Origin: Pseudovirgaria hyperparasitica
Lineage: Eukaryota > Ascomycota > Dothideomycetes > Acrospermales > Acrospermaceae
NCBI RefSeq assembly: GCF_010093815.1
Contig: NW_022985560.1
Span: 1,113,501 to 1,177,500, forward strand
Length of the DNA: 64,000 nucleotides
Direction: 5' to 3'
The position numbers and the translations under genes are program-made. The notes under the pieces were generated by a model, which saw only the letters and a list, made by a program, of their open reading frames with translations, was not told where the DNA came from and searched no databases. Below, piece by piece: positions 6,246 to 37,630 of the stretch. How positions within the stretch are numbered: position 1 is the stretch's first letter; each line of letters begins with the position of its first letter.

Positions 6246-6690
6246 CGGGTGTTATGGATTTGGAATTATGCTATCATGATTAATTACTGCGTGCTGGATG
6301 ATTTATACGATAGACTAGATGATTAGATTGGATTGGAATGGACTGGGATGGTATGGTGTGGCCTGGTCTGGCTCGGCTTAAGATGTGTGGAAGTTGTATG
6401 AGCGCAATCTGTCCGTCATGCGTCTGTTTGCGCTCGAGAGGAATATAGTCACAAACACATATGAACATCTCCGTTCACGCACGCCGCTTCTACTTGTATG
6501 TCTACCCTCCTCCCTGTAGCCAAGTGCCTACGCCGTAAAACCCCTCCCCTTTCCCCTTTCTCTAAACTCTACCTTGTCCAATATCTCATAACAGATATGT
6601 TGATATTTTTCTAGCTTGTACAGTTGTACACGCTCGTAAGTTTTGTCTATTTGTACGTTTGCGTGTGTTTTTGAGTGTTTGTGTGCACTC
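6246..6690. other. LTV1 3' flank, start of the gene-poor block
   Basis: T-rich 3' UTR-like sequence with runs of GATTGGATTGGAATGGA-type near-repeats around 6320-6380. No gene is recognised. Confidence 0.4.
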
Positions 6691-7010
6691 GCGATTGTGA
6701 ATGCATGCTTGATATACGCTCGGCATACGCTCGATATACGCTCGATCCACGTTCTATACGCTCGATATGGAACGAAACGCGTATATAGCGTGGTATACGG
6801 GATTACGTATTGACTTACCTCGTTTACATACGCTCGTGTATTGGTGTGCCTTTATGATGATTTGCGATTATGAGTGTATGCTTGATATGTATGCGATATA
6901 CGCTCGATAGACGTTCTATACCGTTGATATGGCATTGCACGCGTATTTGATAGCGTTCGATACGCGTTTATTAACGAACTTACCTCGTCTATGGGCCTGT
7001 GTGTATTTTA
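6691..7010. repeat. Diverged tandem duplication, about 170-bp unit, two copies
   Basis: Copy 1 begins GCGATTGTGAATGCATGCTT at 6691 and copy 2 begins GCGATTATGAGTGTATGCTT at 6864. Both continue with ATACGCTCGAT, ACGTTCTATA, GATATGG, ACGCGTAT and ACTTACCTCGT in the same order. Within each copy the motif ATACGCTCGATAT is itself repeated. The copies are clearly diverged, so the duplication is not recent. Confidence 0.7.
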
Positions 7011-7296
7011 TATGCGCATACTATTGCATATGTATACGAACCCGTCTCTACAAGACACACTTCTATGAAAGAAGTGAATGAGTCATGTCAATCCCGGGAC
7101 GTGACGTTGACTAATGACTATCTCGTCGTGATAGATTTGGTATTTTGGTGTTGGACATGGGTTTATGTCGTTTTGGCGTGGGTGTCCTTTGGCAAGGAGA
7201 GTCCTGGATGTTTAGAGAAAAGAAAATACAGGATGTTTTCGAAGGTGGGTTTAGGGGTCCTGGAGGTTAAGGGTGGGTTCTGGCTTTCTTTGTTAT

Positions 7297-7492
7297 GAGT
7301 CCTGATGAAGTCCTGATTGAGTCCTGATGTGTCCTGGTTGAGTCCTGACTGGGTCCTGGTCCTGGTATGTCCTGGTATGTCCTGGTATGTCCTGATATGT
7401 CCTGATATGTCCTAGTATGTCCTGGTTGATAGATGATTGAGTCCTGATTGAGTCCTGACTGGGTCCTGGTATGTCCTTGTGTGTCCTAGCTC
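7297..7492. repeat. GTCCTG minisatellite (about 10-bp unit)
   Basis: Roughly twenty copies of a 10-11 bp unit built on GTCCTGGTAT or GTCCTGATTGA occur head to tail. The central part (TGTCCTGGTA, TGTCCTGATA) is most regular, and flanking units alternate with TTGAGTCCTGACTGG. No coding sense is seen. Confidence 0.85.
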
Positions 7493-8488
7493 TAGAACTT
7501 AGATATGTATGCTGGTAAGACCTAGCTCTTCCTCTATAGTCTTATTCGGAGGCCTCTATCCGGTTTCTGTTCTTGGTACTAAGTAGTACTCTAGCGTTTT
7601 CGTCTGCTAGGACTCCTGTATGACCCCTATTACCCTACAATCTCGTCTCTTGTCTATATATTATATATACTCCTGTTCTTGGAGTATATATATATTGGCT
7701 TTTTAACATTCTCTTTTCTGCTTGTTGTCTTCTTCTTCTTTTTTCTCTTTTTGTACCTCTTTTGAACATGACTACAATATAGTTTCTATCTATTATTAGA
7801 TCGTACGAAAGGACCAGATGCATCCTTAGATACGCCGGCTGATAGACTTTTTTCTCCGGGAGATTAAAATTTGGAGCAAGAAAAGGTCCAGTAGAGGGCG
7901 CGGATCGGCGCTGGATGGTTGGAAGTGCGTATCGATAGATCTTGTTGTGTCGTTCTGTGAGAGCACTGGCTAAGGCGTGTGCCCGTTGGACGTATGTGAA
8001 TATTACTGTGTCCTAGGCGTCGTGTGGGTATATGTTGATTGTCTGCGTGCTCGAGTAGGATCCTGTCGAGTCGTCTTCCCGCGATACGCTCGGGTAAAGC
8101 ACGTTGGCTGTATACATATCCCTCTCTTTTGCCAATCCTCGATCGGATTGCGTCTGGTCTGCTTCGATATATCCTCATTGAGTCCCATTTTGGGGGCTAT
8201 TAGTGTCTGTTAGAGTCGATATACGCTCTCCTATGCTTTCTTTGTCCTTCGTTTTTGCTGCTCGTGATGGAAGTATTTCTCTTTCCCTTTCTTCTCTGCC
8301 TTGAAGGCCTTTTACTTGATCTCCTTTTCTTCTGCCTTTTTGCCTCTGCTGAACCGACCGTACGCTGATTCACGTGCGGCATGAGATCATCATCACCGTG
8401 TCTCCCCTCACTTTCCACACTTCATGTTTCATGACTTGTCGGCTTTCCTCTCTCTTTCTGCCTTTCTCACCCGTCATCACATCAGAGA
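7493..8488. other. Gene-poor stretch, no feature recognised
   Basis: AT-rich sequence with a TATATA-rich patch around 7655-7700 and pyrimidine-rich patches (7725-7760, 8260-8345). Only short chance frames on both strands. Confidence 0.4.
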
Positions 8489-9016
8489 CGTCCACCCATA
8501 CCAAAGCAGGTCCACTCTCTTTCCCACCACCACTTCTACGCAAAACTTTACCCAAACCCCGTCCGTTCCCTTGTGCTCGGTTCCAGATCCACCCATACCA
8601 AATCAGGTCCACTCTCTTTCTCGACCGAGCCCCTGTCTCATCTCCACTACCACACTGAAGCTTTCCACCCATACCAAAACAGATCCTCTCTCTTTCCCAC
8701 AATGACCAGTCGACCATCACTCACACCCCGCCATTTGCCTGTGCTCAATTCCCCATCCACCCATACCAAGCAGAGCCAATCTCTTTCCCGTCCTCGTCCC
8801 CTTTGCCATCCTGTACTCCACCCATACCAAAACAAATCCACTCTCTTTCCTACCTCCCTTTGCGCATCCACATACACCCACGATTCACTCAATACAGCTC
8901 CATCCATACCAAGCAAATTCCACTCTCTTTCCCACCTATCCATCCACGCCCAGTCACTCCACTCTACACGACGCCACTCCACCCATACCAGATAGTTCCA
9001 CTCTCTTTCTCACCGA
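8489..9016. repeat. Seven-copy spaced repeat, 36-37 bp core
   Basis: Core copies begin with CCACCCATACCAAA or close variants and end with CACTCTCTTTCCCACC or close variants. They lie near 8492, 8589, 8665, 8757, 8818, 8900 and 8979. Spacing start to start is 61-97 bp. Parts of the spacers are also alike, e.g. ACCCCGTCCGTTCCCTTGTG before copy 2 and ACCCCGCCATTTGCCTGTG before copy 4. The block is therefore best read as an old higher-order tandem repeat in which the core is better conserved than the spacer. The plus strand is strongly pyrimidine-rich. Confidence 0.85.
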
Positions 9017-9769
9017 AGCACCAACTTCTCGTTCGGATGCACGGATTGTTCCCTTCTCCCTCGCTGTCTCTCCCACCCTTTGGAGAAACAAGCCGGACGT
9101 GTGAGTATCGATAGCATGGTACGTCATTAGATCGATATGTTAGTATGTCATACCCTCAGAGCCAGAACCGCGTTGGGGCCAGAGCCGCGTGGGAGCCAGA
9201 GCATCGTGTCGCCATGTGTGGTCTCGGGCGTGTGCGGTGTAAATGGGACTAGTGATGGTGATTTTTATCGTCTTAGTCGTCATCGTGTCTTCCGTTGATG
9301 GAAGTGTCTTCGGTACCCGTCATGTCCGTACTCATCCTAATCGCCATACCGGTCCCTATCTCCCCTGGCCTTCCTGATCAATACCAGACTCACGTGAACC
9401 TAAGCATACTCTGCGTCGAACCTAGGTTGGTTTTGTAGTCTGTGGTAAATCGAGGGCGTGTCCTCGTCTACAGTGGGGTTGATTGAAGATCGGACCACCT
9501 TGTCGGAGGCGGAGTTGTAGTTGCTACCATTTAGTGTTGATTTGTGTGGATGGTGTTGTTAAGAACGTCATATAGCGTCCTAAAGCGTGGAGTAAGTCTG
9601 GAGTAAGTCTAGAGGTCTCAGCGAACAAGCCTGATGCCTGAAGGTATTAGGTAAATAGATGAGCAGGAAGGTATGTGGGTTGTATTCCGGCTGGCTGGCT
9701 GATTAAGTGATTGAGTGGCTGGCTGGGTGTGTAGTGAATGATTTGATGGTATGCGAAGATGTGCGATGA
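9017..9769. other. Gene-poor stretch
   Basis: No gene recognised. Small local repeats: GAGCCAGA units near 9159-9203 and GGCTGGCTG units near 9690-9730. Confidence 0.4.
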
Positions 9770-10012
9770 TCTGATGATGTGCCGTTGTGCTATGCTGTGT
9801 CGTGACTTGATGAATGTGTTATGCTGTGCTGCGATGGTATGCTGTTGTGCTGTGGCGTAGTGTAATGCTATACTGTCAGTGTTATGCTATGTTATGCTGT
9901 GCTGTGCCGCGCCGTATTGATATGCTTGTTGTGCTGTTATTCTGCTGTACTGTTATTCTCTGCTCTGCTGTTAGGCTGTTGTACTGTGCTGTGCTGTGCT
10001 GCTATTAGGCGA
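9770..10012. repeat. TGCTG/TGCTATGCTG microsatellite
   Basis: A degenerate pentamer/decamer repeat built from TGCTG, TGCTA and TACTG units. It is densest at 9870-10010 (GTGCTGTGCTGTGCTGCT). Frames through it give Cys/Leu/Tyr runs that are not a gene. Confidence 0.8.
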
Positions 10013-11354
10013 TATCATACTCTGCCATACTCTACCATGCCATACGACGCCACAATCAGTTCCTGTATACATCCGTGCTCCATCGGCATCCTCTCAACAG
10101 AAGTTCCAGCTATACTATGGCAACAAACTCATAGAGCAACTATAAACCGCATATAACAATGTCAGTGACTGCTTTAAGCGGCAAAGGAGGAGTGGTTAGT
10201 AACTGCCTAGTTTATATTCAGAATGGACGGTGCATGGACGTAGGCATGTCAGTAGGTAGGGAGGTAGTGGAGAGGGAGGGAGGTTGTAGGGCTGCTAGTG
10301 GTGCTTGTGGTGATGGTGCTGCTCGCGGTAGTATCACCACTGAATACCACAGGGCGGTAGATGTAGAGAGAGTGGTCAAGCGTAAGGGGAGAGGTCTAGT
10401 CAGTCATCACCCATCACAGCAGCGCACCCATCGAAAGTCAATCACAACACAACACAACACCACACATCAACAGGACAAGACACCCTGACCATTGACGGTG
10501 TTACTCTCTGCCATGTCGCGGTGTGTAGTGTCGTCTAGTGTCGCTTCGTATCGTATACTGCAACGGAGGAGGCAAAGAACCAAAAAAGCACGTCACTGCA
10601 GGGAGGAAGCAGAGCGCAAGAACCAAAGACAATGAACCAAAATGATGTCAAGGCACGGATGTGCATGTGATTTTTCTTGTTGCTAGCGAGAGTATCTGAG
10701 TGTCCGTGGTAGTATGAACTGTTGGCCGTCGGTCCAGGAGCTGTCGGTCCAGCAATCATTGAGAGTACATGGTCCTGGACGGTCTTGAGAGATGAGAGTC
10801 CCGGAGAATATAGTCACACGAAATGAAGGCCATTAGCGTCTGATGTTCGTGTTCGTGTCGGTGTTATCATATCCAGCCATAGCGAAGTCCAGATGAACGG
10901 CGAAATCAAGTCCCGAAGAAAGCTGTCCAAGTCCGGGAAAGAATCCCAAGTCCGGAGCAAGGATACCCCAGACGATCCATCCGAGCCGGAGCGGAGAGCA
11001 TCCATCCGTCCATGCCATCTCACCCGTCCACGATCGCACCATCCGATCGCGACGACAATGACAAAGACGAACCATGGCCAGATCCAGATCCAGTAGGACC
11101 AGCACCTATCCACACAGCAGTCAGTAGCACCGACACGAACTCGACATACCAACCACACCATTCCACACAGGTCAACCAAATGAAAAACCCGAGTCAGTCA
11201 ATCGACTAGAACAGACCAGAAACGACACACAGACGAAACCACAGACGCCCACGACAACATCCAGAAATAGAAACACGACCCCTTCCCACGCCATCCCATC
11301 CCATCTCTTTTTGTAGTAACATTAGATTATCGCAAGCCCAGCACGGACAGGACG
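10013..11354. other. Gene-poor stretch
   Basis: No convincing gene. A CACAA-type repeat occurs at about 10442-10465. Several short frames are Arg/Thr-rich chance translations. Confidence 0.4.
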
Positions 11355-11810
11355 AAGATCCGAGCAGTTAGCTAGAGGGAAAGGGAAGGGAGAGAGGACG
11401 GAATAGAGAAGCCAGTGCGAAATGAAATAAAATGAGATGAGATGATAAAGAAAGAGAATGGATGGGATGGTGGTCTAGAGCGCATCGTCTCGCCTCCCGT
11501 CCCGGCCCCGGGCCTAGGTCTAAGCGTAGGCGTAGGAAGATAGAGAAGTGAAAGACGAAGTAGATAGAGAACGAGAAGGAGGAGTACAAGGAGAAGAAGG
11601 AGAGGGAGAACAAGAACACGGGGCAAGAAAAGAACAAAAGGAAGACAGATAAGAAAGACAAAAGGGCGACGAAGAAAAGAATCAAGAAAGGAAGGAATCT
11701 AGAAAATCCCACAACACCCCCAGAAAAGAAGAAGAAAAGAAGCAAAAAAACACGGAAGACGAAAGAACCGGGAGAGGCAAGGCAAGGCCAGGAGAGAGGG
11801 GTGCCCAAAG
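11355..11810. repeat. Long purine-rich (GA) tract on the plus strand
   Basis: Two nearly pure purine stretches, about 11370-11460 and 11540-11810, are made of GGGAAAGGGAAGGGAGAGAG-type and GAAGAAAAGAAG-type sequence. A GC-rich island near 11490-11520 separates them. The complementary pyrimidine strand gives a Leu/Phe/Ser chance frame. Such mirror-rich purine tracts can form triplex DNA (known property; not tested here). Confidence 0.75.
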
Positions 11811-13279
11811 AGCATAAATAAAGTTTAAGATAAATCAGCGATGGGCGTACGTAGTAGGTAGGTAGGGCACAAGGACATATACATACAGTACATACACACA
11901 TGACATGAGGCAGCAGTACATACATAAGCATCGCGCCCAAGATCTGCGCAAACGATTGGCGTAGCATGTAGATCGGGAATCTCATCCATTTCAAGCCTTT
12001 CATTCCTTCATTCATACACACATACATACTTACATCAGAACAGGATAGAGAGCACGAGGACCACACGCCCGGTAGAGACGATTGGGCAGCGAGAGATTTG
12101 GCGCGAAAGAATGCATGATGCGGGCTGCACCGCGTTATGCATGCACCGTACGCATGCACGCGCGAGTCGTGGTGGAGGAGGAGGATGGGGTGAAGGAGGG
12201 TAGAGGAGGGGGTGGAGGGTAGTGTGGCGCTGGGCGAGATGCATACTGGCTTGCATGCTGCATGGAGGTGGAGTTGGGTGTGGAGGTGGAGGTGCATGTG
12301 GGTGAAGTTATGATGGTGGATTTTGGGGGGGGGGGAGTTAGATGATAGAGGGTAGATAGGGACACGAATGGTGGGAGTGAAGGGGCTATTATTAGCATTA
12401 ATTACTGCCTGCAGGAGAGAAGGTATATAGGTAGTAGATATGTATGTAGGGTGGTGTGTATCAGATTAGGAGTCGGAAGGTTTGATGAGAGGTCTAAAAG
12501 TAGAAGTGCACTGACTGCGACGTATTCTGCACTGACTACGTCTTTCCTCGTATCCAGTAGTGGTGACGCTGGAGGCTGGAGGCTGGAGGTTGAGGGCTGA
12601 AGGTAGGGGTTTAAGACTGAAGTGAACGACGTTTGTTATTGTTTACTGTTATGCCTAATGTCGTTGTTCGACGACAGGGGGTAGGTAGCCACGCAGAACC
12701 AATCACACCCCACGTATTACCCATCCCAGTCCAGTCCACAGGCGCACTACCCATCCCAGCCCGTGTATCACATGTCACAACATCGCATCTCCGCAAACCT
12801 GCATGCACATGCCGATCCAAACTCCCCTCGCCATCACAACTTCCATCTCACCCATCGCCATCCAAGTTCGCAATCGCAGTTCGCAATCGCCAAGCCCCTT
12901 GAGATCCAAGATCACATTCAGATCCAAGATCAAAAAAACACGCACCATACCCTCCCAAGTATCAAGCGAGTAACACACCTAGATCGTTGACAGATATCCC
13001 CCCGGATCTCCCCCAACCCGCCCGATCGCCATCTCCATCTCAGATCGATCTCCAAACCTGTCTTCCCCAACCTATACTTCCAAACTACACCATCCTTATC
13101 CCAAACTATACCGTTCACCATCCATACATACTCGTACAGCAAGTGTATACTACTAGTAGTGCCTCCCACAGCCCAGTCATCCACACGAAACACGAACCCC
13201 CCCAAATACACAAACAGTCCAATCAGCAGATGCGAGGTGTACCTCCGCGTTCTTACACCAATGAATACATACGCCATAC
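11811..13279. other. Gene-poor stretch with G-run
   Basis: Repeat-rich intergenic sequence: CATACATACA-type units at 11878-12035, GGAGG/GGTGGAGG-rich sequence at 12165-12300, and an unbroken run of 11 G at 12325-12335. No gene is recognised. Confidence 0.45.
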
Positions 13280-13372
13280 AGACCAGAAACGCCCCCCCTT
13301 GGCCCCCGGTCCCCCCGGTCCCCCCGTTCCCGTCTTTCAAGCTGACACACACACTCTCACACACACACACAA
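13280..13372. other. C-run cluster (G-quadruplex/i-motif candidate) and CA repeat
   Basis: C runs of seven, five, six and five occur between 13292 and 13325, separated by TTGG, GGT and GGT. The minus strand therefore has at least four G runs of five or more with short loops, the standard pattern for a G-quadruplex. A CACACTCTCACACACACACA-type repeat follows at 13343-13372. Confidence 0.75.
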
Positions 13373-14287
13373 GCTACGAATTCTAGGTCGTTACGTTACC
13401 TTACCCGGCACGGGCGACGGGCCAGGGGCCCAGGGCAGCCGATTGGGCGTGCGGGCGTGCCATGATACGCTTCGTGACGGGGTGTGTTTGGAGGTGGTGG
13501 GTGGTAAGACCGCCCAATTGATGATTAGTGTTCGGTTCGATTCGATTTGGTGTGTGTTCTAGAGGTTTCGGGGGTTTCGGGGGGGGTGGTTTTGTTGTGG
13601 ATGGAGGTAATTAGGTAGTTGAGAGAGATAATAGAGTGAAATAGATGAAGGAAGGAATTGGGGGCCTAGATTATCGAGGGCTCGGGAGATTTGGGTAGGC
13701 ACTCAGGCATCGTTGATTGTGGTATTTGGTTAATGGGGGTGTAGTCACGATGATGATAATGTTGAGATGTTGACGTTGATAATGTGTATTAATTGCTAAT
13801 AGACTGCGTACGTGTACGCAGCTGCCTCCCAAGTCCCAAGTCCCATCTCAAGTCCCAAGTCTGAGTCCTGCTCTCTCGCATCCATCCATTCATCCATCCA
13901 TCCATCCATCCATCCAGAGCGCCTGCCCAGTGCCCAGTAACAAACAACAGAGAGAAAGAGAAGAACAATATGTTCGAACCAAACCAAGCTTCGATTCGTA
14001 GAACTGTGTCAACCGCCCATGCATGCCATGGGGGACTTTGCTGCATGTGTGCTGCTGCTGCTGCTCTCCTCTCCACCTTTATACATGTCCATCAAGAATG
14101 TCGAAACAGAAAAAGTAAAAAAACTCAGCCGCCCATTTGTGTGAACCTTGAAGAAATAAGAAACCCGTAGTGCTCGTAAACCTCGGCTTTTTTGCAGAAA
14201 AAAACATATAATACAGTTGCGCCTGTCGTACATCATATACATCACTCGTCCACAACACACGACGCCCTCATGGGCCCCTCATGCCGG
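13373..14287. other. 3' flank of the WOPR gene
   Basis: Probable long 3' UTR plus intergenic sequence on the minus strand. It includes a G-rich patch at 13565-13592, a CATC repeat at 13879-13917 and a GCTGCTGCTGCTGC run at 14051-14065. No other gene is recognised. Confidence 0.45.
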
Positions 14288-15781
14288 TTATGATGGCAGG
14301 TAGCCGTCGCTGTAGTTACCGGCCATCATCTGACTGAATGCAGGCTGGTATTGGCTCATGTGGCCTGCCGAGTACGACAGCGGTGTCAGGCCGCCACCGT
14401 TGTGGCTGCCAATGTCCGCTCGAGCACCGCCAAACGGTGACCCAGTCGCCATGGGGGTAAAGGTCTGTATCATTGGCGTTTGCTGAGACCAGTGGCCGCC
14501 AGTTGGTGTCCAGAAGCCGTCTTGCGCGACAGGTGTCTGCCCCACTGGGTAGTAGTGTAGCGGCGGGGGTGCTTGCAGCGGCTGCATGCTTTGATGACTC
14601 GGAGAATACTGTGGCCAATGGTGCGCTTGCATATCCGCGTGGCGCATATGGTGCTGGAACCGGATCGGGTCATCCATCGGGTTGTCGGGGTTGTTTTGGA
14701 ACTTTTGCATGTTCAGGAGATCAAAGCGAGGCTGGATCTCGCCAAACTTTGCATCCTCGCTCATGCGTGCGAGTTTGCCGAAGAGGACGTCTTCCAGCTT
14801 GTAGTACGCAATAATGTGGTGCACATTGCCCTTGTACTCCACACTGATCGTCTTCTTGACCAGTCCGTCGCTCTTGAAGTTGTAAGAGTCCGTCAACGAT
14901 CCGCAGAGACGTCGACGCTCAGGCTCGGGTATCGTAAGGGCAATGTCGTTGGGGTTGAGTACTGGGGCAGCCTGGTCGCCGCTCACTTCATCGTACTCGT
15001 CCACGCCGTCGTCGTCTGATCGCTTGCGCTTCTTGATCGCCTTCTTCTTCTCACCAGGCTTGTGATCCTTCTCCTCCACCTCGCGGTAGATGAGGAAGTT
15101 GGGCAATAGTCGACTCGGACTCCATGAGACACCGTCTGTCCAGCGCTTGATGCCGGACGCGTTCTCCTCAAACACGAAAACGTGTCCGCTGCGGATCACA
15201 TCTTCGCGCTCGCGGTCGTACGCACGGCGGGGCATGTGCCGAAGCTTGCCTTGGAGACAGCCTTCCAATAGTTGCAAGGCCTCGTACGTCGATCCAATGA
15301 AGCCCTTCCAGGTCGGCTCGAGCTTCTGCTCAGCAGAACGGGTGCCACGGGACTTTGTCCGCAGAGTTGACCGCGAAGGGGAAGGTGTGGGAGGAAGGGT
15401 AGCTTGACGAGGCAACGGCTCGACTCTTGGTTGTATGGCTTGGTTGTTAGATGGATGGGCCGAGTCCATCCGCGGGTTCAAGGGAGCTGGGTTTGCCGAG
15501 GGATGCGAGGTCACGTAGGCATTTGCGGGCATGTGCAGACCTGGTGTTGACGGGAGAAGCTCTGTTTTGGCATCTACGCCGTCATGGTAGCGAGAAGGAC
15601 TGTTCATATAGCTGACCCGTGGGATAGGCTCGTACGGTGATCCAGCAGTGTCAACGGCCGACAGCCATGGTTCGTTGGATATGACCGATGATGCTGGTGA
15701 GCTGAAGCCATTGCATCGAATGTCCTCGTAGGCCATTCGTTTTGCCGGGCGGGGCTGGGAGTACATGTTTGATGAGTCCAT
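14288..15781 (-). CDS. WOPR-domain transcription regulator (Gti1/Pac2 family, Wor1/Ryp1/Sge1-like)
   Basis: Sequence-specific DNA-binding master regulator. Relatives control white-opaque switching (Wor1), yeast-phase growth (Ryp1), and effector expression and conidiation (Sge1). A single exon of 497 codons starts at ATG 15781 (MDSSNMYSQPRPAKRM); the frame stays open upstream but has no earlier ATG. The WOPR domain spans about residues 156-340. Its first half reads WKGFIGSTYEALQLLEGCL, then PRRAYDRERE, SGHVFVFEENASGIKRWTDG and VSWSPSRLLPNFLIYREVE. A basic KKKAIKKRKR linker follows. The second half has RLCGSLTDSYNFKSDGLVKK and HHIIAYYKLEDVLFGKL. A 155-residue disordered Pro/Ser-rich N-terminal extension is longer than in the classic members as I know them. 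The C-terminus is Gln/His/Met/Pro-rich, as is usual for these activators. The gene stands alone in about 31 kb. Assignment to Wor1/Sge1 rather than the Pac2 branch is an inference from motif wording. Confidence 0.93.
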   Translation of the reverse strand: MDSSNMYSQPRPAKRMAYEDIRCNGFSSPASSVISNEPWLSAVDTAGSPYEPIPRVSYMNSPSRYHDGVDAKTELLPSTPGLHMPANAYVTSHPSANPAPLNPRMDSAHPSNNQAIQPRVEPLPRQATLPPTPSPSRSTLRTKSRGTRSAEQKLEPTWKGFIGSTYEALQLLEGCLQGKLRHMPRRAYDREREDVIRSGHVFVFEENASGIKRWTDGVSWSPSRLLPNFLIYREVEEKDHKPGEKKKAIKKRKRSDDDGVDEYDEVSGDQAAPVLNPNDIALTIPEPERRRLCGSLTDSYNFKSDGLVKKTISVEYKGNVHHIIAYYKLEDVLFGKLARMSEDAKFGEIQPRFDLLNMQKFQNNPDNPMDDPIRFQHHMRHADMQAHHWPQYSPSHQSMQPLQAPPPLHYYPVGQTPVAQDGFWTPTGGHWSQQTPMIQTFTPMATGSPFGGARADIGSHNGGGLTPLSYSAGHMSQYQPAFSQMMAGNYSDGYLPS

Positions 15782-24900: not shown

Positions 24901-24939
24901 TAAACGAGGCTATTTCTACGGAATTAGCGGCGGCGATAT

Positions 24940-25102: not shown

Positions 25103-28100
25103 ATCATGGATGGGAGTCCAAAACGCCCAGGCGACGTCGTCGACTCGACAGCACGTCGTCCATGGTGCTCGAGCCCCAAGCCTCTCAACAAAGAATCCTC
25201 CGGCCAAGCTGCCAACGGGCAGTGGTGCAATGCAGATAACATTGTCAGATGACCAAGATGCTGCTGCTATACAGATACCACACAGATAATACCGCTGTGC
25301 CTGGTTCTTTGGCTTGAAACACTGATCAAAATCCATCCTGCCCATCCCCAAAGGGGCGTAGTGAAGCGAGCGAGCTGCAGTCCCTTTAGACTACTACTGC
25401 CGTGGGCCCCTCAAGACTCAACGCTCGCCTTAACCCAGCACCAAAGTGGAATAATGAATGCTCATAATGGCGACGGTGCAGTCCCGTGCCGCAAAAAGGT
25501 GATCCGACTGGAAACTAAGTGGTTATTTGTCTGGCTCTGGTATAGAGGATTCGCGAATAGGCCGAGACCAGGGCCATCTTTTGTCCACGCCACAAGGTCT
25601 TTGTCGGGCCAGCTCGGTGCCTCCGGGCCGAAGAAGAACCAAATAATTTCATGATACGCGCGACACGAAGGGACGCTACACGAGTACTGTATGCGCTGAA
25701 GTAGAATAGGACGACGAGCTGCGGAGCACGGCGCCGTTGTGAGGCTCGTCGGTCTGGTCTTGAACGAGGCGTGACGCGTGGATTCAAGGAAAACAATAGT
25801 TTTTTACCGCTTCAACCGTGATGATCGACTCGATATCAGCTTTCTCAGCATGGATCCCTTCGCAAGACGACGAGACACGGACGTCTGATTTGCGTCCAGG
25901 ATGCTGTGCGAATGCGAGATTGAGATAGGACTCATTAGAGTGCAAATGGCCGACACGGAACAATATCTGTGTGAAGAATGCGCACTGTGAGGAGGCTAAA
26001 CGTGGAGCCGCACAGGACACGCGGCCGAGATTGAGGGTGGGTTTGCAAGCAAGTTCAGCATAAAGCCAAGGCCACGCATGATGGAGATGGACCAATTCAT
26101 GGTCTTGTCGGAGGGCCTGACGAGGTCTGTGGTTCGTCGGTTTGTGGTGAATGTTATTGTTGTTGTTGTTAGAGAATTGCTGTGATGGTGGATTTCAAGG
26201 TTCCTGCCGAGCCGTCGCACACACGAGAGACAGAAATGGATATCACGTGCAGAATCTATTATATCTTTCCAAAAAATGGCTCTCATCGACAGGGCGAGAG
26301 GACGATCCAGTTCATTATCATGCACGTAAAAACATGTCGGTCCTCTGTAGACCTCAAGAAGCAAGTTCGCCGCCACCACGTAGCGGTGCGTCAAATCTGC
26401 AGTGTAGATCTAGGGACCGGGAATGGTTGTGTACTGTACATAGCCCTCACAGGACAGGACAGGACAGGAGAGGACAGGATGCTGACGTCAACACAAAAGC
26501 AAACAAGTAGTACTATGTACGCATCTTCGACCGAGACAAGCCCCCCAAGAGACCATCCCATTCCCATCCAATCAATGAATCCTTCAAGTCTTTCCTAAGA
26601 CGGGAGGAAGTCCTCAGACAAAAAAAGAAAAAATGAATAAGAAAAAAGCAACGACAGCATTGCCAGATGCGACCATGATTCAGACGAACATGTTCACAAA
26701 ACGGGAGGCAGGAGGCGGGCTCTGCCTGTTTCATGTTGCTCCCTTGGGACTATCTGAGTCGTTCTCGAAGCATGCAGGAGGAGACATAAATAATTATTAG
26801 CTTCAACCTTTTCGACACGTCCGTATTAACACGAGATTAAGTCTAGCAGCAATGCGCCTCTGAGGTAGCTGGTACCATCTTCTTATGACAAAGCGTCACC
26901 AGACCACCACTGGCAGACCGATATCGTGGCCGGTACGGTACGTAGGGCTCGTAGCACACACACACACGCACACACATACACACAATCTGGGAAACGGCCA
27001 AAGCGGTGGCTGATCTCAAGATGGGGTCTCAGATGGTCTCAGATGGGCAGATGGTCCTACCGTCATCGTCGTTGTCAGGACTCTCTCAGGGCTGACTATC
27101 TCATCTCACACGCCGTCCGCCACAAAATGGATGCGCACGGAGCAAGAACGCCATCGTCTTTTTCATCATACCCCACATTTCATCTCTCGACGGTTTCTAT
27201 TCCGGGATGACCCTGGTTTCAAGAGCGAACAAAAGATCTTTTGAGGTTCATGGGCCGTTGGATGGTCAGGACAGGGCATATGCATATAACGCACACGCCA
27301 GACGATGAATGGGATCCACTTTCCGAAACTCACGCTCGGAACGGAGTCGAGCTCAGGCGTGCAAGGAGTCAACATGTGTGTGTGTGGGAGGTGGAGCGGC
27401 AGAGAATTCTGCAACACCCCGGCCCTAGGTACGTACCCTTACAAAGCAGCATCACATCACCAGGACTACCATCAAGACATACAAGGAGGCACGTCCACCC
27501 CCGCGCTCAGATCGGCACAGGCAGCAGACGACGCCACGCGAGGTGGCTGACTTGTCCGGCATATATGAAAGACAAGACTGCTGTTTTTAAATAGAAAGAT
27601 GTCTGGGGGCAACTTGGTGGCTTGCAGGAGGCGAGGTCGGCAGTCGTCGTCGTGGTCGGAGAAGCAGCTCGATTTGATTGTACATCCGAGCTGCCACGCG
27701 AACGAGAGACATGATGCGGCGTAGGTAGAATGGAATGGGGCAGAAAGTGTGGAGGACAGGGCCGTATAGACAGATTCTACAGATATGAGGGCGGCACACG
27801 CACACATCAGCCGGCGCCGGACCGGTACTTGGACATAGCCCTGGAGGAAGGCCTGAAAGTGAACCTGGGCCGGCAGGGAAATGAGTCCATGTGTGTTTGT
27901 GAGTGTGTGCTGTAAGAATGTATGTGTGGTGAGTGTATGGTGTGTGTGTGGTGTGTGTGTGGTAGGGACGAGTCATGAGGAGTGGTGACATGTTCCATCA
28001 AATCTGAGCCGGCGCCCCCAAGGTTGCCGGGAGTCGCCAAAAGCGGGTGGGCTGGAAGTGCCTGAAGTGCCTGTTTTGCCAGTGGACGGTGCCTGAGTCT

Positions 28101-30660
28101 GGGCTGACCTGCCCACGACTTGTCTGGGGGGGAGTTTTCGGCGTTGTCGTCCAGCTGCTGTTCCCTTCCCGAGCTGCCACCAGGACCCCCCCCCCTCCTC
28201 CTCCGCCAAAGCCCAATAACATCAACCCAGAGAAGTTGCAAGGTCGGTGCAAGGTGCAAGGTGGCGCACATATCCAGCATTCTAGCATCCTTCTAGGGCT
28301 TCACGCCAGGCATCCCCGGTCCTCTCGTCCCTCCTTAATTCTCCGTCCAACGCAGAAGTCTGCCCAATAACACGACTGAACGATCCACGACTCATGAACT
28401 GCTGCTGCTAACAAGTAAGTGTTCTATACTACGTACGCAGGTACAGCACTGCCGATAGTATATTAAGAAGCCCTGAGTGGAGGAAAGCGGACAAGGGGGG
28501 GTGGGAAGAGAGAAGTGGGCGAAGCGGCCGAAGCAGGGAATGACTGGGTCAACACAGCAGCGGTCAGTGTGGACAGTGGTCAGTGACGAGGTTTGGAGGA
28601 GCAGCGTACGGATCGTGCTCCGGCTGCTCAGATTCGATCGTATTCGGATTCCAATGTATCATCTTATTGCGCTTCACCAAAACCCATCTTTCCTGATGTC
28701 GAAGTAAAAACATGCACATGAGAATTGATGGAAGGCCAGCCGACGAGTACTGACCGAGCGGGGAGGGGGCAATATTTCCCCATGTATTGATCCATCGATT
28801 CTAGCAATTCATGAGTCCATGAATCCATGCGAGTCTGCTGCAGCCCTGGCAATGATCTGTGCAGTTGGGCAACGCGTTATTCGAATTCCTGGCATCACAA
28901 ACACGTGCAAATATGCAATAGATAGAGACACGCCCTATGACTTTGGGCAGGCATACTGTACCTATCAGCAGCTATCATCCATCCCATCACCAATATCGTG
29001 CCGTCTATCGACGACACGAGGAGACTAACACCACCTGTAGATGTTAGTCTCATACGTGATCAGCATTTTACCAATTCAGATCTATGGCGTATCCTGTCCC
29101 AAGCGCACTGTGCTGCAAATCTCCTCGTGTGCGCCATCTCCGCCTCTACCTCTCTGCCTTAATGCTCTCTTTCCTCACTACACACTGCCCACTCTGTCGC
29201 ACCACAATACCACATGCATGTCAGGATCCGGTCCACGCCTATTTAGTTATATCCTCTCAACTCAACTCACTTTTCGTCCTGGCCCGCATGACAAAGCCTG
29301 CATCTAGTACGCTAGCCAATTGGAGAGAAGTACGAGATTTTGGGGGGGTGGGCTTGCTGCAGCACACACACAGCTAATCAACGACGTTGGCTTTGCCATC
29401 CTGTTCTCCCCCCCCTAAATCCTTCGAAAATCTGCCGCCTCGCTCGCTGATTGGTCCGTATCCCCCCATTCTTCACTCCCTCATGAAAAAACCTTTTAGC
29501 TGCACTGCACGCACTCTCACACTCTGCCAAAAGGCGGTGATAGAGTCGCCAGCACATACACGGTATTTGTTGTAGGAGGAGAATCCGAGCACTATTACAC
29601 CCACATATCCCCACACATACATCCCTTCCTGCATGCATGCAGCAATTCTCAAATCCAGCATTTTCACTTCAAAATCTTAATTATGGGCCCCCCTTCTCAA
29701 CCCCACCTGCGACCTCCTGCAGATGCTGTCTTCAAACACGGCCTGCAGACTCTCCATGGAACGAACATACATACATACTCCTCATGCAGTACTGTCATCA
29801 TCGTCGTCATGTTTTCATCATCATTAAACGACGTCTTCTCTGATGGAGTGGCAGATGCGCCATGAAATACTTGCTGATGATGCGTGAACTCGGAATACTA
29901 TCCCCATAACCACAATCATACACAGCCCAATTCTCAAACTCCCCTCCTCAACCATCTCCACCACGTTCCTAAGCTCCTAACATCGATGCCCATGTTTCGT
30001 TCCTCCGTTCGTGCGTGCAGCTGCGTGCGTGTCCTCCCATCCGGGCCGAAAGACTTTGTCCTGGATCTAGGGTGTTCAGGCCCTATCCTATCTATCTAAC
30101 TAAATGCCCCTCATCGAATGATATCCTGATAGCTCATGGCAATATCGCATCTCTGCACTGCACTCGAATCACCCCACATGACGGCAGTAAGAGCAACAAG
30201 CAATAGTGACAGTACGTAACAGCAGCAGTAGTAACAGTAAACACCATCATCCTTCTCCGATACGGCCTCCAGCTACCTACCAAGGCTACCTAGGCTAGCT
30301 GGACTCCATGGAGCATCTGCCAGTGACAGTCGGACAAGATACGATGAGTAAGCAAACACTCTCAAGCACTCAGCCTGTCCGCCTAGGTGAGTAGCTTCTC
30401 CTCCAGCGCCAACTCACATGACCGTCCGACGCTGCACGAATCCATGCACGTCGCCCATGTCCTCCTCCCTGTAATTAATTAGTCCACAGGCTTGTCTACC
30501 TAGTCCCAATCCCAGTCCCAGTCCTACTACTCCCAGTCCTCCTCCTACCACAGTACACACCCCTACTTCTCAGGTAGTCCTGGTTCGGATTTGCGCATCC
30601 CCGTCCGCGACCCGCCGCCGCCGTGCGCCGCGCTCGCATCTCCGCGTTTATTTCATTTAG
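25103..30660. other. Gene-desert block 1 (distal WOPR upstream side)
   Basis: No gene is supported; frames are short and low-complexity. Simple repeats: GGACA pentamer at 26449-26479, CA repeat at 26955-26984, GT-rich tract at 27895-27964, a run of about 11 C followed by TCC repeats at 28186-28205, and CCCAGTC/CCTCCTAC units at about 30505-30550. The sequence is not RIP-mutated. It may hold distal regulatory sequence or noncoding transcripts (inference). Confidence 0.5.
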
Positions 30661-33600
30661 CGGGGTCCGGTGTGGGAATACGCTGTAATACTGCAGTGCT
30701 GCGCACGACGAATCAGGTAATCCGGGAATGCGTACGTGAGACCTGAGTGAGGAGGTGAGGGAGTGAGTAAGCAGGTACGTACGTAGGTACGAGTACTATG
30801 TACCTGGGTAAGCACGTGATTGCTCGGATTCGTGATGAGATGGGAAGGATTCATTATGCTGTATTTAATTAATTATTCTCATCTTATTCCTGGGCAAGGG
30901 AGGTTGCCAATCGGCTCGTTGCGCATCGCGTGGGTTTGTTTGTCTACTGCCTGTCTGTCTACTACTTGTCCACTGTCATGTGTTTGTCTGTCAGTCTGTC
31001 TGCCTGTCAAAAGCCCCCTTACCTCATACGACAACAATAACAACCATAAACAACCGCCTAAACTAACCAAAAACAACCCGCACGCCATGAATCAGCAAAC
31101 CCCAAATCTGCCCTATCTGCCGTATCCGCCAAATCTTCCCCGTGAAATTAATTAAAAAAGTGCTTGGCTTCGGCCTCGATTCCGACCGTTATTTTCTGTA
31201 TCGGTTTCGCTAATTAGCGCCTCTCTATCTGTCCTCGCTATCTCTATCTATCTCCCGACTTTCTATCTCCCATACAAACCACACACAAACCACCCGTCTG
31301 GACCGTCTGGGGGGCATACAACACCATAATCTGGGGGCGAGTTGCCAGTCTTTGGTACGGACTAGGTGACTACGTGACTAACTAGCTGATTGATTAATTG
31401 AGTGGTTAAATTGATATTCCCCGGGAGTTTTGTGTGGTGGTCGTCGTCTATGGCTTACCCCGGAGTTTTTAGTCGCGATTTGCCGCTGCCGCTGCTGGAG
31501 GGCCTGGAATTGATTCTTGCTGTGGTGGTTGATGGGTGCGGGTTGAGTGCTGAGTCTAGGCAGGTAGTCAGTCGGGCAGTAATCTGATGTCCTGGAAAAG
31601 TGCAGATCGAGCAGAAACACGGGCAGCAGTCACTTTCTACTCCCTCTCTCTCTCTCTCGATCTTCATCCCCATCTTCCGCTCTTAGATCACGAAGGCGTC
31701 AGGCCAGTCTCACTGCAGTAGTTCACACGACTAGCGATCAGTCAGTCACTTACTCACTCCCGTCGTGCTGCCTAACCTAACCTCCATACCCTACTAACCT
31801 ACTAAATGACCTACTAACCTCCCTCCCTCCCTCCATGATAACCCAACAACCACAAACCGCAACCAATTCAGCCCCATGGGTAGCTCCTCCTCCTCCACCA
31901 TCCACCACCCTCCATCTCATCCCATCCATCCATGCCCCGGAATACGCTCCGGGAGAGATGCTAAGCTAACTAACTAACGAAGCAAGCCATCGTTCACGCC
32001 CTACGGCCTCGGCCTCGGCCTCGACTCCGCCTGGCCATCTTTAGCATCGACATCGACATCAGCAACACGAATAGAAAATTTGGTACGCTATTTTCTTGTT
32101 CATCTCGGGTTTTTTGTTAGAGGTATCTCCTTGTCTGATCACTGCTGCTTTGGGGGAGGAGGTTGAGTGACTGGGAGGCCTGGTTTGGGAATGGTTTGGG
32201 TATAGTGCTTATGATAAGGTGTATTCGTGCCTTAGGCTGCAATGTGGTGGGAAGCAGTTCTCGGTGCCTTAGGCTGCAGCAATGCTTTAGCTTTTGCCTT
32301 GCTGATGATCAGTGATCTCCCTGATGATGATCCACTACTTGCACGACGTCTTGCACGACATCTGCAGCGAATGTGAAGATGGCGTCATCTCCTGTTGGGC
32401 TGCATTCTGGAGTCATGCCAAAGATTGCTTACTTGAGAGTCGCGTCCTGGGAAGAAACTTACAAAGCAAAGATGATACACGGTACCTTGGTAGTAGGTGA
32501 GTAATGTGCATAACAGCTCCCGACACATGATTAGCCAAACCACTGAGAACTCGCGGCGCAGGGATAATATGCTCGTCTTCGGCTTCGTCTTCGCCATCGT
32601 CACAATTCTCTTGGTCGAGTTTTGTGCTGTGTCAGTAGGTCGGAGACCTCGACACGGGCACTGGACAGTCATCGCGCACGAGCGACTCATGCCAGTACAA
32701 GTGTACAACTTTGCGATGCATGTCTGTTTTCTGACTGGCACGGAGATGGATGGGTCTAGGACAAGACGCTGTCTGTTTATGCTTGTGTTCTGACTGTTCG
32801 CTGGTGTCAACACAATATCAATATTACAGCATGAAAGGCTTAGAGATCGACATGCCGTGGCAAGCCTCCATTCGCATTCGCCTTCAACATCCATCGCAAG
32901 TCGTCGTTTCAGCCAGGCACGTCGCATCTTCACGCTCAACCACACCGTCGCCTCCCATCACATCTCGTGCTTCTCGCAGCAGCAATGCTCACTCCCAGCT
33001 ATCTCCGAGACGGCAGACTGAGACATGCTGCGAATCACTAGTGGAGGGTGGTGGCTTGAGCGGAGGGGGCAATGGGCAGTGAGGAGTAAGCAGTGAGGGA
33101 GGGAGTAGGAGTAGTAGGCGGCGGATCCGAGGTTCCCTGCCTCACACGCGAGCGCATAGACGCCAGATCTGCATCTCACAGATCCGACTATCCAACGTGA
33201 TGGGTGATGGACGATGGGTGATCGCCACGAGTCGAACGTTCTCATGGCGCTGCTTCTTGTCCGTGCGCCCCATCACGTTCTGCTGGTGCTATGGCTGCTC
33301 ACTGCTGTTGTCTACATGTCTGGTGCGGTCGCGGGTCCCAGCACCACCGGCCAGCACGGGGCTCCCGATGCGCATCGCGGAGGCAATAGCTTGTCCGCCT
33401 ACCTCACAGTCCGCTCTTGTCTGTCTGTCCCTGATCATGCTCTCGACAACACGTCGAAGATGCGGACATTCCTGTTCGCTCAGACGACTTGTCTATCGAT
33501 TCTACTAATGTGGACTGTCACTATTATGGCTGGATGTCACCAGCAGCAGGGATCCCTCCCTCCAGGGCCGACAGAGCAGGCGGTCAGTCTGGTATCTCAT

Positions 33601-36600
33601 TCAACGTGATATCTCAAAGCGTTGAGGCAGACTCACAAGCTAGACCAAAACGCTCAAGACTGTCAACCAAGACCCCTACTGAGGAGTCAAGACGTTGATA
33701 GCAGCTACTTAGTAGCCCTATCTGCAGCACCAGCACCAACGCCAGCGCCAGCACCAGCGGTAGAAGGCTGAAGTGTCCAGCTAAGAAGCCCTAGAAGGAT
33801 GGGAGCCTCCTTTTCAGAGCCCATCACTACCCCTTGCAGACAAGATGATGTCTGTCTGTTCCATCTCTCACGCCATGCTGTCTACTGCGATGACCGTTGG
33901 CTGTTACGGCCGCAACCTGTCCCTCCGCTTCGTCCCCTCTTCTAAACTAACTATTAACTATCTATCTATCCTACGTAGCCTGTGTTACTACTGCCTGCCT
34001 ACCTACCTGCCAGCTCTCTGTTCAACGAGCGTTGAGGGGGGCCTAACGGTGACATATTTCGGCGCGGCGGCGCGCCGACTAGCCATGTAGCTAGCCATTC
34101 CCCATCACAACCAACACTTCTCTCATCATAATTAGTAGGACAAAACAACACAGCATTCACACCGCAACCATGGAAGGGACGTTTTGTCATGATGCTGAGC
34201 GGATTGCGTCTCTGTTTCGCGCGATGGCTGGCGATACGAACGGCGATTGCATGGCATGGTCTGGTCTATCTGAAACAGCTCTCTACCTAGGTACTCTGTC
34301 GTTTCCCCGCCCTCCCTTACTTGTCTCTCTACCAGTGGTTGAAGACCCATCGCCATGTCACGCAGCACAAGTCTAGCAACCAGAATGAGGCTTTTCATCA
34401 TCATCATCAGACATACCGAAGACCGGTACATCGACAGCGTCTGCCGGCGCTAGAAAAACCGGTGACCGTACAAGACCGCGTCCTGGATGCTTCTAACCGT
34501 TTGATATAGCTCTCTCTAATTACCAGGACTCAGGCTTAGAACAGGCAAACATGCATATGCACTGTCACCGCCCACTCCGTCCACCCTATCCACTATGTCC
34601 AATGCTAGTTATCTATTGTCTGTAAACGGATAATTCGATGGTGTCGGCCCTAGATTCAAAGCCCTCTCCGCTCTAATTAGCTGTCCAGACTCCAGTCCCC
34701 CTACATACCCACTTCTCGCCTCGATTCGACAAGACTGACAGCGACTGACATACGGAACACTGACCTGCTGATTCTACCCGACTGGCTCGGCCGGAGTAGA
34801 AACAATGATACACCCATTGTCATCGTCATCACTATCATCATAGTCAATACATGCCCCTCCTCTCAATAGACCGCGACATAGTGTTCCCATACCCAACTAA
34901 AGTCACCTCACCTCACCTCACCACAGCACAGCACAGCCGCGATGACAATAACACAACAACGCGTCCGGTCCGCTACATACAGTACGCCTCTCACTCGCTC
35001 GCTCGTCCCTTGGTCGTTCGCGCGGACCGGGGCATGAAAGCTAGCTAGCTACATAGCTAGCTAGCCAACTTCTCGTGCATGTGTGTAGTGTGTGCCGCGA
35101 CCGCGACCTAATCAATCAATCAATCATCATTGCTGATCTGCTATCCATCCTGCGAACTACTAACCACAACTTGCTAATTAACACATTGCTGGTAGCTTGC
35201 TATGCTATGCTCTGCTCTGCTCTGCTATACTTTGGTACGGCACCTACACCGTTCGTTTCAGGACCGGGTAGAGGCTGTCAGATATCTATGGTGGGCGGCT
35301 GCTGAGATGTATGACGTCATGCGCGCAAGGCGGGGCGGGGGCAGGGATTGGGTCCACTTGTGTTTGTCGGGTACGCCGCTTGGCTGGCTGGATGGTGGGC
35401 TGGTTTGTCTGGCTGGGTGAGTTTTCTGGGTGCGATGTTGTGCGGCGTGGGCTGGTTTGGTGTTGTGGTGCGGGTGGTGCGGGTTGATTGTATGGGCTTT
35501 GGTGTCGTTGAAGACGTGGTTTGCGATACGGCGTGGGTGGGTTGAGGGTTTGGATGGAGTGGTGGTGGTGCTGCTGCTGCTCGTACTGGGGTTTATGTAT
35601 ATGGTGTATGTAAATGGCGTATCTATAGGTAAATTCCTGCATGTGTATGTTGTATACAATGCTGTGTGTGTGTCCAGACGTGCGTAGATGAACCTCAACA
35701 GCGATAACATAGACGCATTGAAATGTCCATTGGAGACATGTATGTATTCACACATATAAACTCCTCACACGACCCATCAGTGCTCAGCATATCATCTAGC
35801 TATACAACCCATCGCATCCCCTCCAACGTAATCAATTTATGCCTAACCATGCAAGACTTTATAACAAGTACGCAAACATATATACATTCCAAGCCCACTC
35901 TTCCAAACGTCGAAGTAGAGTATACAGTTATGCTGCTGTGTATATAAACATGAATATACGGATGAATGGATCGATGGAGTTGTTGGAATGGATGCAGTGC
36001 ATGGAATCATGGGGTTAATGGCGCAGACACAGACTAGAAATCATACAAAAACCTCACGTCTCCCTTATTTCTCATATACACAAACAAGCCCTGAGCTCAC
36101 CAGCTTTTCACATTAGCAGAAATGGCATCCTTTCTAGATCTACCACTCACTTCTTAGGGGCAAGGGACAAAGGACAAAGAACAAACAAAGCACGTAGGTC
36201 CGTTCTGAGAAATGTACTGCCGGGATTGTAGGCCGATGTGTGCGTGTATGGATACGATGTCTTTGGTTTCGTATACATCCTGCGCTTGATATTGACGATT
36301 GATGGTGCTGAGAAGGTTTCTGTTTTAGTGAGGCGTGGATTGTATCTTGGACGGTGTCTTGGACAGTGTTTCCATGATATGAAGGCGGACAAAGCCATCA
36401 CTAGACCACGTAGCACATACTACCCAAAGACATTGAAAGAGCATCAACACACCATAACTACAACCGCGAGGCAAAGGCAATAACTACATACTCATCTGTC
36501 CTTGCAAACTTTCCCAGCGTGTAGTAGGTTAGTATCATAGAAGCACATATGAGCAGAAAGTGGTTCTTGCCCATAGACCATTCCGTTCGTCTTGCGTGGG

Positions 36601-37630
36601 TTGCGTTTGGGTCTGGTTGATTTAGATACCGAGTCTTGTGCTATACAGGGTGTACATGAACGGGTGAGGCAAGAGTGCGCTGCTGGTTTGTGTGTATCCG
36701 CTCACATGTCACACGTATATACTCATCAAGCTCTAGCCCAGCCTTACTTTCAGATCACACACGCATCAGCAAGAAGTCAGAGACTTAATATCGACATCAC
36801 ACTTGAATCTCGCATCAAGTCCACACGATCGTGCCTCCACCGATTCACTTTCACAGTTCATTCTCCTCGTGACAAACATACACTTACCATGCATGAAATC
36901 TAATCGACGAGTCTAGTTTACACAGATGGCTTAGGATATATGCGGCACTCAAGGCGGTGTATAGACGTGTTAGTGAGGATGAGAGCAATGTCAATGTTGG
37001 ACATGAGAAGGGATATAAGGCACGGCGTGCGAGCGGGAGGTATGGTCTTGTGTAGATATTGTATAGAATAGAAGCTTCTCCTCGACGACATGTATGTATG
37101 ATGGAGTGGTGTTTGAGCAGTGATGGCACTTTGGAATCATTTCGCAACAGAGCCGACGGGGGGCGTGTATACGATGGTGTACACTTCAAGTATGGCGAGT
37201 TGGAAGATATGTATGATATATCTTGGGGCTGCGTCCGAACTGGCTGGTGAGTACAGACTGGCCGGGTAGTAAAATTACATCAACACTTTGTTTGCACGAG
37301 AAATGGCAGTGGTAAGTAAGTTTTATAGCTGTAATTGCACTATGGAAGATCTGAGTGCAGGTTTACATATCTGCGCATTGCCTTCTCCAAGAGTTCCTCT
37401 GCATACATCCGAGTCTCTATCCTTGGTGAAGTGGAATGGTAAGACTACGCTTTTATATAAAAGTATAATGAAGAAAGTAGTGCCTCGCGGCGTTGTGACT
37501 TCTAAAACAGAAAGTGTGATGCCAGGAACTGGATCATCGGCATCATGAAAAGCAGCGAAGCTAGATAGGTCGCATCTACATGATCGACAAGGTCTGCCGT
37601 TCAAGACATCGTTGTGTCGGCCCATGACCA
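30661..37630. other. Gene-desert block 2
   Basis: No gene is firmly supported. Simple repeats and patches: GTAC-rich sequence at 30775-30812, CTGTCTGTCTAC units at 30950-31005, CT repeat at 31641-31660, GGCCTCGGCCTCGGCCTCG at 32008-32026, AGCACCAGC units at 33724-33760, a TAGC inverted repeat at 35040-35065, and TGGCTGG-type sequence around 35380-35420. A weak signal-peptide-like frame at 33244-33609 is described under findings. Confidence 0.45.
35040..35065. repeat. Perfect 12-bp inverted repeat with 2-bp loop
   Basis: GCTAGCTAGCTA, then CA, then TAGCTAGCTAGC. The arms are exact complements and could form a cruciform or hairpin. It is built from the tetramer TAGC, so it may simply be a microsatellite with one interruption. 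Confidence 0.75.

What the first reader, a model, noticed from the sequence alone, without database searches (positions are those of the whole stretch)
6246..37630. WOPR master-regulator gene alone in a 31-kb gene desert
Seen: both arms have a gene about every 2-3 kb, yet from LTV1 to the F-box-like gene only the WOPR gene is convincing. It has 8 kb of repeat-rich DNA downstream and over 20 kb upstream, 7.6 kb of which is a LINE. Known: Candida WOR1, a relative, is controlled by an unusually long upstream region. Inference: the desert may hold distributed regulatory elements or noncoding transcripts governing this switch-type regulator.
Basis: partly seen in the sequence, partly recalled or inferred. 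Interest (0 to 1): 0.7.

Follow-up and report, generated by a model that had tools for sequence, protein, structure and literature searches.

The report
Fungal switch-gene in long noncoding flanks
A fungal gene resembling known master switches of cell fate sits alone in about 31,000 bases without other recognisable genes, an extreme case of the long control regions already described for such genes in other fungi, though nothing here proves that the empty DNA is functional.

Summary
In 264 kb around the window, a home-made gene finder puts the two largest coding-free gaps on either side of the WOPR gene: 21.8 kb upstream and 8.05 kb downstream, against a median near 1.1 kb and a next largest of 5.5-5.6 kb. 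Outside the LINE, read-through frames hit no Pfam family, the stretches searched occur once in the genome and show no RIP. The LINE has exact 18-bp target-site duplications and strong RIP; without it the upstream region is about 14.2 kb. The gene is the Wor1-like one of two WOPR genes. Long upstream gaps also occur at 3 of 5 other regulators examined, and an 8-kb WOR1 promoter and an unusually long ros1 promoter are in print. So this is an extreme member of a known kind. Against a stronger reading: no WOPR-type site upstream outside the LINE, no clear excess of intron-like sites or structured RNA. Conservation, chromatin and transcription could not be tested. The 8-kb convergent downstream gap stays unexplained.

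The parts
14288..15781 (-). WOPR (Gti1/Pac2 family) regulator gene, one open frame, predicted 497 aa; WOPR box starts near residue 156; Wor1/Ryp1/Sge1-like
   Evidence: Pfam PF09729 E 6.1e-56; PDB Wor1 4qtj 101 bits, YHR177W 88 bits; coding log-odds 125.9 nats over the ORF. Start codon inferred, not proven.
15782..17448 (-). proximal upstream region / probable promoter and 5' leader, pyrimidine-rich on the gene's sense strand
   Evidence: 36% of 300-bp windows with |Y-0.5|>0.12 against 3.5% in other intergenic DNA; no Pfam hit in six frames of 15893-17448
17431..17448 (.). target-site duplication, copy 1 (TTCCTTAATCTGGTTGGT)
17449..25084 (-). RIP-mutated non-LTR (LINE-type) retrotransposon inserted in the upstream region, reverse transcriptase on the - strand
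   Evidence: RVT_1 E 9.6e-24 with stops read through; RIP index 1.63; elsewhere in the genome only one 125-bp and two 55-bp matches at 81-82%
25085..25102 (.). target-site duplication, copy 2
25103..37630 (.). distal upstream desert, no RIP, no recognisable gene, found once in the genome (its right end also holds the 3' region of the F-box-like gene)
6246..14287 (.). 8-kb convergent gap between LTV1 (+) and the WOPR gene (-), rich in diverged tandem repeats and strand-polarised tracts
8491..9025 (.). array of a C/T-rich motif (TCCACCCATACCAAA...CCACTCTCTTTCCCA) spaced about 76-153 bp, at least 5 copies
   Evidence: families D2, D5, D6
4788..6245 (+). LTV1 homologue (open frame), left border of the desert
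37631..39208 (-).

Best explanation
The desert is the native noncoding flank of the genome's Wor1/Ryp1/Sge1-like gene. Upstream it is an unusually long cis-regulatory region of about 14.2 kb (15782-17448 plus 25103-37630), of the kind known for WOPR and other developmental regulators. It probably collects many dispersed binding sites so that one switch gene can integrate several signals. A LINE inserted 1.67 kb upstream of the predicted start codon and was mutated by RIP, stretching the gap to 21.8 kb. Shown: no recognisable genes, no RIP outside the LINE, no second copy where searched, the insertion, and long gaps at some other regulators. Inferred: that the sequence is regulatory, and that distal sites act on this promoter. 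The 8-kb downstream gap is probably nonfunctional or 3'-untranslated sequence grown by repeat slippage; that is a guess.
For: Largest two gaps of 264 kb. No Pfam relics in read-through frames. One place in the genome for 6246-14287, 25113-31000 and 31001-37600 (that search skips simple repeats and common words). RIP index -0.28 to -0.48 outside the LINE against 1.63 inside. Long coding-free upstream stretches at the Pac2-like gene (7.0 kb), the STE gene (9.5 kb including about 2 kb that looks RIPped) and the C13 Velvet gene (up to 9.2 kb, to the end of the fetched stretch), against a largest of 5.6 kb among the other 81 of 82 upstream distances in the 264 kb. Published: an 8-kb WOR1 promoter with Tup1 bound at 2.4-7.4 kb (PMC5786334, passages); unusually long ros1 promoter with six Ros1-bound regions (PMC4917244, passages); Ryp binding events at longer intergenic regions (PMC3720256, figure legend).
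Against: No TAARGTTT site upstream outside the LINE, so the published self-activation element is not visible (about 0.8 would be expected at the density of other intergenic DNA, so this is no significant depletion either). Two of six regulators examined, a KilA-N gene and the C6 Velvet gene, have no such gap. FgSge1 binds mainly within 1 kb of start sites. Conservation was not testable. The downstream gap does not follow from this model.
Confidence: 0.53

Rival explanations
1. Neutral growth: the flanks are tolerated, nonfunctional DNA lengthened by slippage, small insertions and one LINE, with only the proximal 1-2 kb acting as promoter.
For: Downstream 8 kb is 7.0% tandem repeats against 0.75% in other intergenic DNA. 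No enrichment of WOPR sites upstream. Distal upstream DNA has ordinary strand polarity and few tandem repeats. FgSge1 binds mainly within 1 kb of start sites (PMC13205826, passages).
Against: The WOPR gaps are far outside the local distribution, and long upstream gaps recur at some other regulators, which chance growth would not favour.
Confidence: 0.25
2. The desert carries long noncoding or very long leader / 3' transcripts (sense or antisense) that control the switch gene.
For: Convergent 8-kb gap with extreme pyrimidine/purine polarity (24% of windows against 3.5%). Distal part has 8 intron-like sites (two overlapping) against 4 in reversed sequence. Stable folds (z<-3) in 1.9-3.1% of desert windows against 0.9% elsewhere. 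Longer leaders are described for RYP2 and RYP3 in Histoplasma (PMC4503680, passages).
Against: Intron-like sites are not in excess downstream (1 against 4) or proximally (0 against 0). No Rfam match at gathering score. Mean folding z-scores are about 0 as in other intergenic DNA, and the tail rests on 10 of 442 windows with 24 shuffles each. The passages seen do not name RYP1 among longer-leader genes.
Confidence: 0.12
3. Genes were missed: small, intron-rich or orphan genes (for example small secreted proteins) lie in the desert.
For: Four weak coding-like stretches at 10859-10996, 11571-11736, 12725-12935 and 27984-28292, denser than in reversed intergenic DNA (4 in about 22 kb against 7 in 131 kb); stop-to-stop frames up to 365 aa. 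The gene finder is weak on short exons.
Against: The stretches score no higher than the null. The 365-aa frame scores -56 nats; the eight other frames of 151-219 aa tested score -16 to +6. No Pfam hit at E 0.05 in six read-through frames.
Confidence: 0.1

Closest known systems
WOR1 upstream region, Candida albicans (8-kb promoter; PMC5786334, passages seen)
   Same: Master regulator of the WOPR family with a very long upstream intergenic region.
   Different: There, Wor1 and Tup1 binding along the promoter was measured. Here the region is longer (14.2 kb plus LINE), no binding data exist and no canonical WOPR site is seen upstream outside the LINE.
ros1 long intergenic region, Ustilago maydis (PMC4917244, passages seen)
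   Same: WOPR gene with an 'unusually long promoter'.
   Different: Six ChIP-bound regions there; a basidiomycete protein with the WOPR box at residues 8-305, while here the box starts near residue 156 of the predicted protein.
FgSge1 self-activating promoter, Fusarium graminearum (PMC13205826, passages seen)
   Same: Wor1-clade regulator of a filamentous ascomycete.
   Different: Three candidate TAARGTTT elements in its promoter; none upstream outside the LINE here.
Long upstream regions of fungal regulatory genes in general (Noble and Andrianopoulos 2013; only title and one citing sentence seen; paper not held; content recalled)
   Same: Regulators with more than average upstream DNA, as seen here at 4 of 6 examined.
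   Different: WOPR here is the longest of those measured and also has an 8-kb convergent downstream gap.

Membership tests
WOPR (Gti1/Pac2) protein family | Gti1_Pac2 domain over its whole length | tested here: met
   PF09729, profile positions 1-168 of 168, E 6.1e-56
Wor1/Ryp1/Sge1 clade of the WOPR family | Closer to Wor1 than the second, Pac2-type gene; most fungi have two genes in two clades (PMC3364952, passages) | tested here: met
   Window gene 101 bits to Wor1, C19 paralogue 66 bits; two intact genes plus one disrupted copy of the paralogue found. That C19 is the Pac2-type is inferred; no tree was built.
Wor1/Ryp1/Sge1 clade of the WOPR family | WOPR box at the N-terminus (starts at residue 8-9 in Ros1 and A. 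fumigatus OsaA) | tested here: not met
   Box starts near residue 156 of the predicted 497-aa protein; the extension scores as coding, 22.4 nats, but the start codon is not proven. Other Dothideomycete members were not compared.
Long autoregulatory WOPR promoter (WOR1/ros1/FgSge1 type) | Unusually long gene-free upstream region | tested here: met
   21.8 kb, 14.2 kb without the LINE, against a median of about 1.2 kb for 82 upstream distances
Long autoregulatory WOPR promoter (WOR1/ros1/FgSge1 type) | WOPR-type binding sites (TAARGTTT) in the own promoter | tested here: not met
   0 upstream outside the LINE; 2 downstream and 3 in the RIPped LINE. Only the exact 8-mer was tested.
Long autoregulatory WOPR promoter (WOR1/ros1/FgSge1 type) | Regulators bound at several places along the region | not testable with these tools
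   needs ChIP-seq

The most novel reading that the evidence does not exclude
The locus is a two-sided regulatory domain of about 22 kb: a super-enhancer-like upstream array without canonical WOPR sites, plus a strand-polarised 8-kb convergent region giving a noncoding transcript. The RIP-mutated LINE inserted 1.67 kb from the start codon acts as a local heterochromatin seed that makes this master regulator's expression metastable.
Probability: 0.07. Interest if true: 0.75.

Novelty: new member of a known kind. Interest (0 to 1): 0.35.

Why it matters
It adds a filamentous ascomycete to the WOPR genes with very long upstream regions and suggests that, in one compact 35-Mb genome, long upstream DNA marks several developmental regulators. 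If distal elements act over 14 kb and across a silenced transposon, it would give a tractable model of long-range control in fungi. As it stands it is an extreme example of a described architecture.

Tried and rejected
Decayed transposons or old genes as the source of the desert: rejected outside the LINE, because RIP index, copy number where searched and six-frame Pfam scans are negative. In the LINE itself a second, sub-threshold Pfam match (RPN13_C, 19.4 bits, cut-off 39.3) is taken as chance. Long open frames as genes (365 aa at 11368-12465 and eight others): rejected, coding log-odds -56 to +6 nats. The four weak stretches: not accepted, but they are denser than in the null; after checking this I raised the missed-gene rival from 0.08 to 0.10 and lowered the best explanation from 0.55 to 0.53. 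Spliced noncoding transcript from intron-like sites: distal 8 (two overlapping) against 4 in reversed sequence, other parts not in excess; too few to claim. Structured RNA: mean z about 0; z<-3 in 3 of 160 downstream, 1 of 32 proximal and 6 of 250 distal windows against about 8 of 886 in other intergenic DNA; the strongest outlier is a single AT-rich hairpin at about 7652-7699. Rfam: nothing at gathering score. tRNA: none. Motif lists for StuA, BrlA, AbaA, Ste12, GATA, CreA and others were tried without a prior hypothesis, mostly recalled from memory: some are denser in the desert than in other intergenic DNA (MCB, CreA, BrlA, STRE types), some sparser (StuA, HSE types); I do not interpret these because of multiple testing. 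Word enrichment mostly rediscovered the tandem repeats and G/C-rich words. A k-mer classifier (RIP-like windows dropped from the comparison set; 84 other windows, 25 regulator windows) gave AUC 0.66-0.72 for all regulators together and 0.50-0.76 singly, base composition alone giving 0.66: weak and post hoc. Relatives for synteny: no pattern match in IMG/VR; in the prokaryote genomes 36 pattern matches, none confirmed, as expected for a fungus.
Full report
What was checked. The window lies at 1,113,501-1,177,500 of a 1.45-Mb contig in a 35.0-Mb, 59-contig assembly. I fetched 100 kb on each side, trained a codon-periodic Markov model on long open frames, and ran a seven-state Viterbi gene finder. 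It is a crude tool: it can miss small or spliced genes and split others.

The desert is real. With score cut-offs of 20, 25 and 30 nats the 264 kb hold 84, 83 and 75 predicted genes, one per 3.1-3.5 kb, with median gaps of 1,125, 1,116 and 1,369 bp. In all three the gaps flanking the WOPR gene rank first (21,814 bp) and second (8,053 bp); the third is 5,487 or 5,584 bp. The four extra stretches predicted in the desert score 11.4-18.6 nats. The null gave seven of 11.2-19.2 nats in 131 kb of reversed intergenic DNA, and two in the reversed desert. So the scores are noise level, but their density, four in about 22 kb, is above the null; a missed short exon is possible. Nine stop-to-stop frames of 151-365 aa score between -56 and +6 nats. 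Read-through frames of 6249-14287, 15893-17448 and 25085-37630 gave 0 Pfam families at E 0.05. No tRNA and no Rfam family at gathering score was found.

The LINE. 17449-25084 is bounded by an exact 18-bp duplication (first seen), encodes a reverse transcriptase on the - strand when stops are read through (RVT_1, E 9.6e-24), and carries strong RIP (composite index 1.63; 42% GC). Elsewhere in the genome the search found only one 125-bp and two 55-bp matches at 81-82% (that search skips common words). Its 3' end, inferred from the orientation of the reverse transcriptase, faces the WOPR gene at 1.67 kb from the predicted ATG. Without it the upstream region is 1,667 + 12,528 = 14,195 bp.

The rest. 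Downstream (8,042 bp), proximal and distal parts have RIP indices of -0.28, -0.35 and -0.48, like other intergenic DNA (-0.38). 6246-14287, 25113-31000 and 31001-37600 each match only themselves in the genome; the proximal 1.7 kb was not searched. The distal part has ordinary tandem-repeat content (0.84% against 0.75%) and strand polarity (1.6% of windows against 3.5%). The downstream part does not: 7.0% tandem repeats and 24% strongly polarised windows. It also lies between convergent genes, where the median of 21 gaps is 661 bp and the next largest is 2,641 bp, so a promoter cannot be its reason. I have no good explanation for it.

The gene. Pfam Gti1_Pac2 covers all 168 positions. Best solved relatives are Wor1 (101 bits) and YHR177W (88 bits), against 66 and 64 bits for the paralogue on contig 19. 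Most fungi have one gene in each of two clades (PMC3364952, passages); this genome search found the window gene, the contig-19 gene, and a disrupted copy of the latter on contig 39. The window gene is therefore most likely the Wor1/Ryp1/Sge1 member; no tree was built. Its WOPR box begins near residue 156 of the predicted protein, not at the N-terminus as described for Ros1 and OsaA (passages).

Other regulators. Four family searches of the genome gave ten loci by my grouping of the matches; I measured six. Coding-free upstream distances: WOPR 21.8 kb (14.2 without LINE); Pac2-like 7.0 kb, ignoring one 15.9-nat stretch; STE 9.5 kb, of which about 2 kb look RIPped, ignoring two stretches of 12 nats; Velvet on C13 up to 9.2 kb to the end of the stretch, its first exon not located; KilA-N on C2 about 1.0 kb to a weakly scored (17.9 nats) but 393-aa open frame; Velvet on C6 0.3 kb to a same-strand stretch that may be its own exon, and 2.9 kb from there to the next strong gene, ignoring a 14.9-nat stretch. 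Four of six exceed 5.6 kb, the largest among the other 81 of 82 upstream distances in the 264 kb. The sample is small and was chosen by me.

Published parallels. Passages seen: the WOR1 promoter is 8 kb long and bound by Tup1 at 2.4-7.4 kb, consistent with Wor1's own profile (PMC5786334); [quoted passage not shown] ros1 has an unusually long promoter with six bound regions (PMC4917244); [quoted passage not shown] Against distance: FgSge1 sites lie mostly within 1 kb of start sites (PMC13205826). Ten paper searches were made; in the titles and abstract starts listed I saw no WOPR gene desert of this size in a filamentous ascomycete, which is not proof that none is in print.

Evidence against a simple Wor1-like loop. 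The FgSge1 element TAARGTTT (PMC13205826, passages) occurs 0 times upstream outside the LINE, twice downstream, three times in the LINE, and six times in the whole window against 2.85 +/- 1.70 in shuffles. About 0.8 was expected upstream, so absence is uninformative about depletion but gives no support for autoregulation through that site.

Verdict. The specific claims of functional distributed elements or noncoding RNA remain untested. It is an extreme member of a known architecture, made longer by one transposon.

Noticed in passing
window 15314-15781 (-): The predicted WOPR protein has about 155 residues before the WOPR box, which in Ros1 and OsaA starts at residue 8-9; the extension scores as coding (22.4 nats). 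A PGEKKKA stretch resembles the PGEKKRA nuclear signal reported in the family.
   Followed up: partly
L003 (G000:C39:18779-22078) against L002 (G000:C19): A disrupted, 96-97% identical copy of the Pac2-like WOPR gene lies on a 46-kb contig. Its differences show no C-to-T excess in the C39 copy; in the main 1,040-bp match transitions towards T/A are commoner in the C19 copy, 23 against 10.
   Followed up: partly
window 6246-14287: An 8-kb gap between convergent genes, three times the next largest of 21 convergent gaps, with strongly strand-polarised and tandem-repeat-rich DNA.
   Followed up: partly
window 6246-37630 outside the LINE; L026, L030, L032: G/C homopolymers of 6 or more are 2.4 to 9 times as dense in the WOPR flanks and in the upstream DNA of the Pac2-like, STE and C13 Velvet genes as in other intergenic DNA.
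   Followed up: no
window 7652-7699: An AT-rich hairpin (10-bp inner stem) is the strongest folding outlier of the desert.
   Followed up: no
G000:C12:586501-588500 (L033, L030): The long gap upstream of the STE gene also holds about 2 kb of AT-rich, RIP-like sequence.
   Followed up: no
window 38661-38797: A 57-bp tandem repeat (a multiple of three) inside the F-box-like ORF.
   Followed up: no
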